A stretch of 64,000 bases of DNA. Source: Streptomyces rubradiris (GTDB lineage Bacteria; Actinomycetota; Actinomycetes; Streptomycetales; Streptomycetaceae). The stretch covers positions 372,001-436,000 of the forward strand of contig NZ_BNEA01000015.1 of the NCBI RefSeq assembly GCF_016860525.1. Direction: 5' to 3'. Each line of letters begins with the position of its first letter. Position 1 is the first letter of the stretch. Positions 49,345 to 51,589 of this stretch are shown one piece after another. Under the pieces are notes generated by a model. The model did not search any database. It saw nothing but the letters and a program-made list of their open reading frames with translations, and was not told the origin of the DNA. Both the position numbers and the translations under genes were made by a program.

Positions 49345-50076
49345 TCAGTCCCCTGCACCCGGCAGGTGGTACACGTGGAACGCCTGTCCGATCACCGGCT
49401 GGGCCACATTGCGTACGCGCACCCCGCCGGTGGTCATGCCGTGCTCGGTGCCGGCGTGGGCGTGGCCGTGCACCGCGAGGTCGGCACCCGCCGTGTCGAT
49501 CGCCTCGGCGAGCAGATAGCTGCCGAGGAACGGGTAGATCTCCAGCGGCTCCCCGGCCAGGGTGTCCGGCACCGGGGAGAAGTGGGTCAGCGCGATCCGT
49601 ACGTCGCAGTCCTGTTCCTCCAGCTCCTTCAGGGCGCCGTGCAGGCCGTCGGCGCACCGGCGGGAGTAGCGGACGAACTCCTTCATGAGGGGTTCGCCGA
49701 ACTCCCCGGCGCAGCGGCCGACGAAGCCGCCGCCGAAGCCCTTGGTCCCGGCGACCCCGATCCGGGCGCCGTCTGCGGTGACGACGGCGGCCTGTCCTTC
49801 GAGGACGTGGGCGCCGGCGTCCCGGAGGATCGCGGAGACCTCCTCGGGCCGTTCGTCGTGGTGGTCGTGGTTGCCGAGTACGGCGACGACGGGCACGCCG
49901 AGGTCCTTGATCTCGCGGGCCACGACCGCGGCCTCCTCCGGTGTGCCGTGCCGGGTGAGGTCGCCGGCGAGCAGCAGCGCGTCGGCGCACCCGGGCAGGG
50001 TCTCGAAGGCGGAGCGCAGCGTGCCCTGGCTCTCGGGGCCCATGTGAATGTCCCCGACGGCCGCGACGCGGATCAT
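49345..50076 (-). CDS. Calcineurin-like metallophosphoesterase
   Basis: A 243-aa dinuclear metal phosphoesterase with all signature motifs: GDIHMG, LLAGDLTRHG, VLGNHDHHDE, a middle His (ALTHFSPVPD) and the terminal VHGHAHAGTEHG. Family members hydrolyse phosphomono- or diesters, including cyclic nucleotides and nucleotide second messengers; no substrate can be inferred. ATG 50076 overlaps the BON gene stop (ATGA), the third gene of a coupled set. Confidence 0.92.
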   Translation of the reverse strand: MIRVAAVGDIHMGPESQGTLRSAFETLPGCADALLLAGDLTRHGTPEEAAVVAREIKDLGVPVVAVLGNHDHHDERPEEVSAILRDAGAHVLEGQAAVVTADGARIGVAGTKGFGGGFVGRCAGEFGEPLMKEFVRYSRRCADGLHGALKELEEQDCDVRIALTHFSPVPDTLAGEPLEIYPFLGSYLLAEAIDTAGADLAVHGHAHAGTEHGMTTGGVRVRNVAQPVIGQAFHVYHLPGAGD

Positions 50077-50351
50077 GTCAGGTCCTCTCCGTGGTCGGGC
50101 GAGGAGGTCCCGGCGATGAGCAGGTCGCTGTGGACGGAGTGCCCCGCCAGTTCCTCGCGGGCCATGCGCAGGATGTCGTCCCGGCACTGGGTGGACGGCA
50201 CGGTGCCGGTGAGCAGGACGACATCGCCGCGCAGTTCGAGTCGTACGCCGAGTTCCCCCAGCTGCCCGGAGGCGAGGTGTTCGGCGAGGTGGGCGACGCG
50301 GTAGTCCAGGTTCCCGGCCGCCGACGGGGGCGGCGGGCTCGTGTCGGTCAT
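50073..50351 (-). CDS. Cytoplasmic single-BON-domain protein
   Basis: A 92-aa protein with one BON domain (DYRVAHLAEHLASGQLGELG, ELRGDVVLLTGTVPSTQCRD, AGHSVHSDLLI). BON domains bind phospholipid or proteins, but this copy has no signal peptide or TM segment. ATGA overlaps join it to the genes on both sides, so it should be made in step with the nucleotidyltransferase-like protein and the phosphoesterase. Confidence 0.88.
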   Translation of the reverse strand: MTDTSPPPPSAAGNLDYRVAHLAEHLASGQLGELGVRLELRGDVVLLTGTVPSTQCRDDILRMAREELAGHSVHSDLLIAGTSSPDHGEDLT

Positions 50352-51487
50352 GGCTGGCCCTCCTGGGCGTCGATCACGTTCAGCCGTTCGAGGAGGAAGA
50401 GGAAGGCGGCGGGCATGGGCTCGGCGCCGCAGGCCGCGCGGACCGCGTCCCAGTCGACCTTCTCGCGCACGGCGCGGGCCACCGGCAGGACGGACCCGAA
50501 GTCGCAGTAGTGCTCGGAGAAGGCGCTGATCAGGCTCTGGATCAGGTCGGTCGGGCTGAGGACGGGCATGAGCACCGAGTCGACCGGCAGGACGTGGGCC
50601 CGGTCGAGCATCTCGCGGGTGACCGGCTGGTGGGCCAGCGAGAAGATGATGTCGACGTTCTGCCCGTGACAGGTCGTCTTGATCAGCCAGTCCTCCGGCG
50701 GGACCCGGACGCCGAGTCCGGCCTCCCGCAGGGTGCCGGCCACCGCCTCGGCGTCGTCGGGGAGGATGGCGAAGTCGGCGTCGTGCTGGAGGTAGCGGCT
50801 GCCGCCGTGGGCGTAGACGGCCACGCTTCCGGCGAGCGCGAAGGGATGGCCCGCGCGCTTGAGGAGGGTGCCGATCTGCTTGGCGGCCTCCAGGATCGCC
50901 TGGCTGCGGTCCTGCGGCAGCTCCCCCGGCTCCGGGCCGGACACGGGCGGCGGCTCGCTCGGCTCCGGAACGGGCGCGGGTGGCGGCTCCGCGCTCCTGG
51001 GCGCCGACTCGGGTTGCGGCTCCGAGTGCTCTGGCCGGCCGGAGGCCGACGCGGGCCGCGGCTCCGGCTGACCGGGGGCCGCCCCGGGCCGCCGCCCTGC
51101 GCGATCCGGGGCCGGCGCGGGCCCCGGCCCGATGCGGCTCAAAGGGGGCGCGGACGGCAGTTCCGTGGGGTCCGTGGCCGAGGTGGCCCTCGGTTCGGTG
51201 GGATCGGAAGCGGAAGCGAGCCCCGGCCACGTCGGTCGCCTCGGAGCCGTCGGCTCGGCGGCGGAAGCCCGCTCCGGCCCTGTCGGGCCCGCCGGCTCGG
51301 CGGCGCGGCCCTGCCCTGGCCCCGTCGGCCCCACCAGTCCTGTCGACCCCGTCGGACCGGAAGCGGGCGTGTGCCGTGGCTCCGCAGGCCCGGGCGCCGG
51401 CGCGCGGCGCGGCCCGTCGGTGGCGAGCCCGAGTTCGGTGACCCCCGCTCGCCGCAGGGGCGCGGTGTCCTCCCCGTCGTGCGTCAT
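50348..51487 (-). CDS. Nucleotidyltransferase-fold protein with long low-complexity N terminus
   Basis: A 379-aa protein. Residues 1-185 are low-complexity Pro/Ala/Gly/Glu/Ser sequence with loose GPTGP and EPS/EPP repeats. Residues about 195-379 have a nucleotidyltransferase core: FALAGSVAVYAHGGSRYL, then the acidic pair in QHDADFAIL and a further Asp in NVDIIFSLAHQPV, as in AbiEii/DUF6036-like enzymes. Target and nucleotide are unknown. GGAGAGG precedes ATG 51487. It is the first gene of a coupled set with the BON protein and metallophosphoesterase; the 102-bp upstream gap isolates it from the permease. Confidence 0.83.
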   Translation of the reverse strand: MTHDGEDTAPLRRAGVTELGLATDGPRRAPAPGPAEPRHTPASGPTGSTGLVGPTGPGQGRAAEPAGPTGPERASAAEPTAPRRPTWPGLASASDPTEPRATSATDPTELPSAPPLSRIGPGPAPAPDRAGRRPGAAPGQPEPRPASASGRPEHSEPQPESAPRSAEPPPAPVPEPSEPPPVSGPEPGELPQDRSQAILEAAKQIGTLLKRAGHPFALAGSVAVYAHGGSRYLQHDADFAILPDDAEAVAGTLREAGLGVRVPPEDWLIKTTCHGQNVDIIFSLAHQPVTREMLDRAHVLPVDSVLMPVLSPTDLIQSLISAFSEHYCDFGSVLPVARAVREKVDWDAVRAACGAEPMPAAFLFLLERLNVIDAQEGQP

Positions 51488-51589
51488 GACCTCTCCATTC
51501 GGCACCCTTGCACCCCGGGCGGCCGGATCGGCCCGGGGTGGTACGGGTACCCGGGGCGCCGCCCCCGACACGGCGCCCGAAGGAGTGGT

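What the first reader, a model, noticed from the sequence alone, without database searches (positions are those of the whole stretch)
49345..51487. Coupled nucleotidyltransferase-BON-metallophosphoesterase module
Three genes joined by ATGA overlaps encode an NTase-fold enzyme, a tiny cytoplasmic BON protein and a calcineurin-like phosphoesterase. A writer-binder-eraser set (nucleotide addition, recognition, removal) is a coherent hypothesis for an undescribed modification or second-messenger system. The NTase also has a 185-aa disordered front.
Basis: inference. Interest (0 to 1): 0.7.

Follow-up and report, generated by a model that had tools for sequence, protein, structure and literature searches.

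The report
Stress-linked writer–eraser enzyme gene trio
Three overlapping genes in a Streptomyces encode an enzyme of a kind that adds nucleotides, a small BON-domain protein and an enzyme of a kind that removes phosphate-linked groups; the two enzyme genes are nearly always side by side in the surveyed actinobacteria that have both, the first enzyme resembles toxins that cap transfer RNA, and a stress-type promoter motif sits in front, so this may be a reversible brake on protein synthesis.

Summary
In detail: in a Streptomyces genome, an NTase gene (51487-50348), a 92-aa BON gene (50351-50073) and a calcineurin-like phosphoesterase gene, MPE (50076-49345), are joined by two ATGA overlaps. 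In 150 Streptomyces genomes NTase and MPE are present or absent together (53 both, 96 neither, one NTase remnant). In 296 genomes of the phylum, 45 of 46 with both keep them within 2 kb, in several orientations. An NTase-MPE pair without BON also occurs in Alphaproteobacteria. Where the class survey found no MPE, the NTase sits near an unrelated phosphodiesterase-fold gene (EEP, 31 of 37) or a ribosome-hibernation-like factor (4 of 37). Catalytic Asps are invariant. The nearest solved fold is MenT1, a toxin that adds cytidines to tRNA 3' ends. A SigB-type promoter motif precedes the operon in 25 of 50 and 47 of 77 Streptomyces loci (overlapping sets). Best reading: a stress-induced, reversible tRNA 3'-end nucleotidylation brake, with MPE (or EEP) as eraser and BON as an MPE-linked accessory. 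Biochemistry is untested. The second-messenger and defence readings gain no support here. The 185-aa disordered front is a local linker expansion.

The parts
51547..51571 (-). SigB-type promoter-like element GTGTCG-N13-GGGTAC, 59 nt upstream of the NTase ATG
   Evidence: Position. The strict motif GTRTCG-N12-14-GGGTAC lies upstream of the NTase in 25 of 50 and 47 of 77 Streptomyces loci (sets overlap), against 1 of 1522 and 1 of 627 background stretches. SigB consensus from passages of PMC8346170. No transcript data.
50348..51487 (-). NTase gene, 379 aa; Pol-beta-type nucleotidyltransferase, conserved core 50348-50920
   Evidence: Relatives pass PF14907 and PF09970. The fold of relative L132 is nearest MenT1.
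50918..51409 (-). Low-complexity Pro/Ala/Glu/Ser-rich linker (about residues 27-190), expanded in this strain and a few close relatives
   Evidence: most aligned homologues lack most of it; degenerate tandem repeats.
50774..50782 (-). DxD catalytic motif (D236, D238)
   Evidence: Invariant in 22 of 22 and 70 of 70 aligned NTases; also in 4 of 4 alphaproteobacterial homologues.
50651..50653 (-). Third catalytic acid D279 (VDIIF strand)
   Evidence: Invariant in 22 of 22 and 70 of 70 and in 4 of 4 alphaproteobacterial homologues.
50073..50351 (-). BON gene, 92 aa, with invariant N-terminal Tyr17-Arg18
   Evidence: PF04972 29.2 bits; Y17 and R18 in 22 of 22 Streptomyces BONs; ATGA overlaps on both sides.
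49345..50076 (-). MPE gene, 243 aa; calcineurin-like metallophosphoesterase with the usual metal-ligand motifs (GDIH, GDLTRHG, GNHD, LTH, VHGHAH)
   Evidence: PF00149 57.3 bits. D39, N69, H70, D71, H165, H203 and H205 are invariant, and D9 and H11 at least 90% conserved, in 47 sequences. Model pLDDT 92.5. That these residues are the metal ligands is recalled family knowledge.

Best explanation
The trio is a reversible nucleotidylation switch of the general stress response. A SigB-type sigma factor turns on the operon. The NTase, a relative of the MenT tRNA nucleotidyltransferase toxins, adds nucleotide(s) to a tRNA (or similar RNA) 3' end and so slows translation. The metallophosphoesterase hydrolyses the added nucleotide(s) and restores the RNA. 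The BON protein is an accessory that goes with the phosphoesterase (substrate binding, scaffolding or sensing). Shown by computation: the genes, their conserved linkage, intact active-site motifs, fold kinship, promoter motif and partner swapping. Inferred: the RNA substrate, direction and reversibility of the chemistry, the role of BON, sigma-factor control and the effect on translation.
Confidence: 0.42

Rival explanations
1. RNA repair: after RNase attack on tRNA, the MPE heals the 3' end (for example by opening a 2',3'-cyclic phosphate) and the NTase re-adds the lost nucleotides. The module mends rather than brakes translation.
For: A Pol-beta NTase beside a release-factor/RtcB repair system was proposed to rebuild trimmed RNAs (PMC6514570 passages). 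The NTase-baeRF pairing and fold matches of the MPE to 2',3'-cyclic nucleotide phosphodiesterases would fit.
Confidence: 0.15
2. Protein nucleotidylation, GlnD/PII-like: the NTase adds a nucleotide to the near-invariant N-terminal Tyr of the BON protein and the MPE removes it, making BON a switchable sensor. (GlnD/PII is recalled; no call.)
For: Tyr in 22 of 22 Streptomyces BONs, in 18 of 18 other separate BONs listed, and in 47 of 56 BON-bearing rows of the fusion alignment. NTase-BON fusions.
Against: No BON was detected within 3 kb of the NTase in 31 of 31 EEP loci, 4 of 4 baeRF loci and 4 of 4 alphaproteobacterial loci, which keep the NTase, so BON is unlikely to be the general target.
Confidence: 0.12
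3. Small-molecule nucleotidylation: the NTase inactivates an antibiotic or metabolite, as ANT(2'') and Lnu enzymes do, and the MPE reverses it.
Against: Inference only: phylum-wide and alphaproteobacterial spread, a stress-type promoter motif and a conserved phosphoesterase partner would be unusual for resistance enzymes.
Confidence: 0.09
4. One reading: the NTase makes a nucleotide signal, BON binds it, the MPE degrades it.
For: Gene order and conservation.
Against: The NTase core is a small single-domain fold nearest MenT1; a CD-NTase (CdnD) appears only at rank 49 in Foldseek. No PADLOC system. BON is not found in the NTase-EEP and NTase-baeRF lineages.
Confidence: 0.07
5. Toxin-antitoxin of type VII style: the MPE acts on the NTase protein itself (dephosphorylation) rather than on its product.
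For: MenT1 is controlled by auto-phosphorylation of T39 (PMC11375011 passages), and phosphorylated MenT3 can be dephosphorylated by the phosphatase PstP in vitro (PMC11541572 passages).
Against: The phosphoacceptor position is Gln in 21 and Arg in 1 of 22 Streptomyces sequences. The EEP swap does not decide it, since EEP enzymes include phosphatases (recalled).
Confidence: 0.06

Closest known systems
MenT1 and other MenT (DUF1814/AbiEii) tRNA nucleotidyltransferase toxins
   Different: Partner genes are a BON protein and a phosphoesterase instead of MenA. The phosphoacceptor Thr is not conserved in Streptomyces. tRNA activity untested. SigB-type promoter motif.
PF14907 NTP_transf_5 / PF09970 DUF2204 (TM1012)
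   Different: The window protein itself is below the PF14907 cut-off (20.9 against 31.2). The models are described only as uncharacterised nucleotidyltransferases.
BON + DUF2204 proteins (cluster 10 of Table 1, PMC7806268)
   Same: Same NTase-BON domain pair, nearly all actinobacterial (77 in the actinobacterial column; passage read).
   Different: That table lists the architecture only; no phosphoesterase link or function is in the passages read.
Calcineurin-like phosphodiesterases (MPPED2, PptH, Rv0805, Mre11)
   Same: Fold and active-site motifs.
   Different: No PDB sequence relative at E 0.001; substrate unknown; conserved family motif TLAGEPxEIYPFLGS.
DarTG-type toxin with a mark-removing antitoxin (recalled, no call)
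   Same: Works like: one enzyme adds a nucleic-acid mark, the neighbour removes it.
   Different: Different chemistry and folds; not a member.

Membership tests
MenT / DUF1814 tRNA nucleotidyltransferase toxins | Pol-beta NTase fold with catalytic DxD | tested here: met
   (model of relative L132); DxD invariant in 70 of 70.
MenT / DUF1814 tRNA nucleotidyltransferase toxins | Ser/Thr phosphoacceptor two residues before the first catalytic Asp (T39 in MenT1, S78 in MenT3; PMC10435456 passages) | tested here: not met
   Streptomyces: Gln 21, Arg 1 of 22; broader set: Thr 6, Ser 2 of 70. Alphaproteobacterial homologues carry Thr, 4 of 4.
MenT / DUF1814 tRNA nucleotidyltransferase toxins | Catalytic Lys and Asp (K137, D152 in MenT1) | tested here: inconclusive
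   No residue-level structural alignment was made; conserved K270, D329 and D345 (window numbering) are candidates only.
MenT / DUF1814 tRNA nucleotidyltransferase toxins | Adjacent MenA-type antitoxin | tested here: inconclusive
   The neighbours are BON and Metallophos by Pfam, but MenA antitoxins are diverse (PMC11375011 passages).
MenT / DUF1814 tRNA nucleotidyltransferase toxins | Transfers nucleotides to tRNA and arrests growth | not testable with these tools
   Needs biochemistry.
PF14907 NTP_transf_5 | Score at or above the curated cut-off 31.2 | tested here: not met
   Window protein 20.9; relatives L132 40.3, L134 38.1, L142 33.7 pass.
PF04972 BON | Score at or above cut-off 27 | tested here: met
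   29.2 bits.
PF00149 calcineurin-like phosphoesterase | Score at or above cut-off 21.5 and conserved active-site motifs | tested here: met
   57.3 bits; motif residues invariant or at least 90% conserved in 47 sequences.
Rv2629-family ribosome hibernation factor (the f28 partner gene, not in the window) | NCBIfam NF052289 score at or above 320 | tested here: not met
   L153: 263.9 bits over nearly the full model; it passes Pfam baeRF_family2, 144.8 against 26.9.
Known anti-phage defence systems | PADLOC model match | tested here: inconclusive
   Only PDC-S10, 30.7 bits, on the MPE; no cut-off is given.

The most novel reading that the evidence does not exclude
A new class of stress-controlled, enzymatically reversible tRNA (or RNA) 3'-end nucleotidylation systems: a MenT-like writer is paired with a dedicated eraser, which evolution swapped from a calcineurin-like to an EEP-type phosphodiesterase, and in one lineage the writer is paired with a ribosome-hibernation-like factor. 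It would be a dormancy switch spread over actinobacteria and Alphaproteobacteria.
Probability: 0.35. Interest if true: 0.87.

Novelty: new variant of a known kind. Interest (0 to 1): 0.63.

Why it matters
MenT enzymes are described as toxins held in check by protein antitoxins, and in M. tuberculosis clean-up of MenT3-modified tRNA is ascribed to general enzymes (the CCA-adding enzyme PcnA, and RNase PH in vitro; PMC11541572 passages). A conserved writer with its own eraser under a general-stress promoter would recast tRNA 3'-end nucleotidylation as ordinary, reversible physiology and give a tractable model in harmless Streptomyces. The partner swap (two unrelated phosphodiesterase folds and a hibernation-like factor) makes a specific prediction about a shared substrate that simple assays can test. 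The literature searches made here returned no description of the trio (open-licence papers only).

Tried and rejected
Second-messenger and defence readings: no support from PADLOC, folds or the viral scan. Phage families: no PHROG for NTase or BON; generic phosphoesterase PHROGs for the MPE. NTase A2 profile against PDB sequences: no meaningful hit; only the broader A5 profile reached MenT1. MPE and EEP against PDB sequences: nothing at E 0.001. Other conserved neighbours in Streptomyces: no cluster beyond the trio is in more than 12 of the 50 loci (simple gene caller of my own). RtcB or RNA ligases were not searched for.

The '1 TGA inside' flags were not examined one by one; the local matches of L018-L023 stop at residue 183 or 189 of the core, so they are probably read-through of the normal stop. 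G179 was counted as an NTase-BON fusion and labelled so (L140); one search shows a TAG between the domains, and one search corrects it (7 fused loci, 5 changes on the tree). In one search the nearest NTase match was used; in G669 and G730 that is a second, weaker NTase, and the better one stands in the usual order. Two papers matched words without relevance (PMC2912261, PMC5411423; passages). The two papers and those not named elsewhere were seen as listings only.

Dropped rows: I kept NTase matches of about E 1e-15 or better, 50 of the 81 matched genomes; the other 31 had weaker, short or BON-only matches. In one search a genome's weaker second matches were ignored, and the MPE limit was 1e-20. 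Of the 54 NTase genomes, 50 were fetched with flanks of up to 8 kb; the other 4 were read in short loci. In one search, 2 of 37 MPE-less loci (L246, L262) are short contigs with no partner visible and count as misses. L245 gave no NTase match and is not in the tree. L070 has a partial NTase match and L077 a broken MPE; neither was repaired.
Full report
What is there. The window lies in a 9.05-Mb genome; the organism names given among the 120 best NTase homologues are all Streptomyces, and some of the 120 carry no name. On the minus strand lie an NTase gene of 379 aa (51487-50348), a BON gene of 92 aa (50351-50073) and a calcineurin-like phosphoesterase gene, MPE, of 243 aa (50076-49345), joined by two ATGA overlaps. 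Pfam confirms BON (29.2 bits, cut-off 27) and Metallophos (57.3, cut-off 21.5). The NTase scores 20.9 for NTP_transf_5, below its cut-off of 31.2, but relatives pass that model and DUF2204.

The disordered front. Most listed homologues are about 228 aa. The window's first 13 residues (MTHDGEDTAPLRR) align with the start of ordinary family members, and the next stretch (VTELGLATDGP) resembles theirs by eye, so the start codon is probably right. The long Pro/Ala/Glu/Ser-rich stretch before the core (about residues 27-190) is an expansion shared, in varying length, with a few close relatives. Its DNA contains degenerate 33- and 42-bp repeats, and its codon-position bias is weak. It is a local oddity; that it is not needed for the function is my inference from relatives that lack it.

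Linkage in the genus. Of 150 Streptomyces genomes, 54 have an NTase match and 53 have a strong MPE match, E below 1e-70 (counted by hand). All 53 are among the 54. The remaining one, G101, has a 58-residue NTase remnant and no BON or MPE match in its fetched locus (L071). So 96 have neither. Of the 54 loci, 50 were read with flanks of up to 8 kb: 48 have NTase, BON and MPE adjacent in the same order, one has BON-MPE about 4 kb away in the opposite direction (L068), and one is the remnant. Among the 48, L070 has a partial NTase match and L077 a broken MPE. The other 4 of the 54 were read in short loci, and all 4 show the trio. In 80 named Streptomyces loci found with the MPE, 76 have NTase>BON>MPE on one strand, 1 has mixed strands and 3 show only BON-MPE within the fetched flank. 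The BON-MPE overlap is 4 nt in 42 of 42 and 67 of 74 measurable loci, 1 nt in the other 7. The NTase-BON junction is a 4-nt overlap in 32 of 47 and 46 of 74, taking the in-frame BON start nearest the stop, which favours small values. No other gene cluster is in more than 12 of the 50 Streptomyces loci.

Linkage beyond the genus. In 394 genomes of the class, 105 have the NTase, 79 the MPE and 68 both; 67 of the 68 lie within 3.5 kb on one strand, 52 as NTase>MPE and 15 as MPE>NTase; the other (G526) has a 35-residue NTase fragment 6.8 kb away. Genomes are not independent, so the Fisher value of that call (3e-37) is only descriptive. The NTase alone is in 37 genomes and the MPE alone in 11, all of one family. 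In 296 genomes of the phylum, 50 have a clear NTase, 49 the MPE and 46 both; 45 of the 46 lie within 2 kb and one has them on different contigs. By the nearest NTase match the call counts 32 NTase>MPE, 3 MPE>NTase, 8 convergent and 2 divergent; with the better-scoring NTase in G669 and G730 it becomes 34, 2, 7 and 2. Adjacency that survives inversion argues for a shared function. Relatives of the MPE at 43-46% identity in the listed rows were found on plasmids of Sinorhizobium, Sphingobium and Azospirillum. In the four loci examined an NTase overlaps the MPE start, and no BON was detected. A relative of the Sinorhizobium NTase is on 126 plasmid records, whose tally by genus matches that of the 126 alphaproteobacterial MPE records; adjacency was not checked in the rest. 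A Nonomuraea locus from the same search (L245) has an MPE but no NTase match in 10.7 kb. A viral scan gave 41 pattern matches, none confirmed as a relative.

Partner swapping. All 37 MPE-less NTase neighbourhoods of the class survey were read. In 31 an EEP-family gene (Exo_endo_phos, 80.6 bits for L148) lies within 3.5 kb, always on the opposite strand, 25 of them within 135 bp; the maps show head-to-head pairs. In 4 a baeRF gene follows on the same strand. Two are short contigs with nothing visible. EEP is near the NTase in 0 of 75 loci that have the MPE, and in 0 of 10 more from the phylum survey; one MPE locus (L142) also has a baeRF gene nearby. The baeRF protein of L153 scores 144.8 bits to baeRF_family2 (cut-off 26.9) and 263.9 to the Rv2629 family ribosome hibernation factor model (cut-off 320, not met). 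On an NTase tree of 94 sequences, EEP is one clade and baeRF is one clade (support 100/99 each), though the tree tool warns of long branches among the deepest rows. So each swap happened once and was then kept across several families; the counts are not independent events. With a BON profile, 42 of 56 MPE loci in that set have BON within 3 kb of the NTase (35 separate, 7 fused), against 0 of 31 EEP loci and 0 of 4 baeRF loci. Of the 14 MPE loci without one, 4 are alphaproteobacterial, 7 are other phylum-level loci, and 3 (L124, L125, L129) have BON in the locus but further from the NTase. BON therefore goes with the MPE rather than with the NTase. NTase-BON fusions need 5 changes on the tree. 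They occur in Thermobifida, Amycolatopsis, Frankia and Mycolicibacter among others. An earlier survey lists 'one BON and one DUF2204' as a mainly actinobacterial architecture (PMC7806268, Table 1 passage).

Active sites. In the NTase, D236, D238 and D279 are invariant in 22 of 22 Streptomyces sequences and 70 of 70 broader ones, as are E265, W267 and K270. The 4 alphaproteobacterial proteins share the triad. In the MPE, D39, N69, H70, D71, H165, H203 and H205 are invariant, and D9 and H11 are at least 90% conserved, in 47 sequences. Both enzymes look active; that these are catalytic and metal-binding residues is family knowledge.

Regulation. A strict SigB-like motif, GTRTCG-N12-14-GGGTAC, lies within 750 nt upstream of the NTase core in 25 of 50 and 47 of 77 Streptomyces loci (overlapping sets), against 1 of 1522 and 1 of 627 background stretches of the same length. 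The looser form GNNT-N14-16-GGGTA[CT] is in 29 of 50 and 53 of 77 (background 50 of 1522 and 10 of 627), in 15 of 37 loci of the EEP/baeRF group (14 of 665) and in 8 of 27 other actinobacterial MPE loci (23 of 692). The motif class was chosen after I had seen the window's sequence, so the window itself is not a test, and the strict form was drawn from the first set of loci. Other controls for the loose form: 29 of 415 upstream regions of other genes in the same loci, 8 of 50 on the antisense strand of the NTase upstream regions, 0 of 50 in reversed sequence. GNNT/GTTT -35 boxes and GGG-rich -10 boxes, some GGGTAC, are described for promoters of the nine S. coelicolor SigB homologues (PMC8346170 passages). 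Outside Streptomyces the loose element begins 34-93 nt upstream of the NTase match in 20 of the 23 loci that have it; the other three lie at 131, 393 and 447 nt. In loci L120-L130 of one family, DUF6328 is present in 10 of 11 and a PRC-barrel gene in 10 of 11, and L120 has a CBS-BON gene, which fits a stress island. Control by a sigma factor is untested.

How it most likely works. Taken together, a MenT-like transferase is usually found beside an enzyme of phosphodiesterase type (calcineurin-like or EEP) or, in one clade, a hibernation-like ribosome-binding protein, often behind a general-stress promoter motif. The simplest common substrate is a tRNA 3' end. I infer that stress induces the NTase, tRNA is nucleotidylated, translation slows, and the phosphoesterase reverses the mark. 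It is also possible that the pair repairs RNA, or nucleotidylates BON (near-invariant Tyr17) or a small molecule; probabilities are given under the rivals. GlnD/PII and DarTG are recalled comparisons and rest on no call.

Novelty. Searches for BON domain with nucleotidyltransferase and metallophosphoesterase (no paper), with Streptomyces (none), the Pfam names (only PMC7806268), stress-island terms (one unrelated listing) and toxin-antitoxin terms (two listings, not read) gave no description of the trio; the library holds open-licence papers only. I rate it a new variant of a known kind (MenT-like NTase modules), with a credible case for more.

Noticed in passing
L120-L130 (one actinobacterial family, f17): In 10 of these 11 loci a DUF6328 gene, often with a small membrane-protein gene, DUF1360 or an LLM-type oxidoreductase, lies between MPE and NTase, next to PRC-barrel genes in 10 of 11 and CBS-BON genes in L120: a stress-gene island.
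   Followed up: partly
L152, L153, L250, L253 (family f28): NTase followed on the same strand, by overlap in L152 and L153, by an Rv2629/baeRF_family2-like gene.
   Followed up: partly
L143, L144, L260: The short region between the divergent EEP and NTase genes carries a near-palindromic GGGTACTAGCTACCC element, perhaps a two-way stress promoter.
   Followed up: no
Class survey, family f18 (G166, G244, G254 and 8 others): 11 genomes of one family have an MPE relative without the NTase, with weaker scores, perhaps paralogues.
   Followed up: no
G669 and G730 (phylum survey): A second, weaker NTase match lies on the far side of the MPE from the usual NTase.
   Followed up: no
window:53355-54512: SpoIIE-type phosphatase gene (150.9 bits), divergent from the amino-acid permease gene upstream of the trio.
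   Followed up: no
window:44668-46071: Protein with two DUF11 stretches (153.9 bits), perhaps a surface protein.
   Followed up: no
L068: Trio rearranged: BON-MPE lies about 4 kb from the NTase and on the opposite strand.
   Followed up: no
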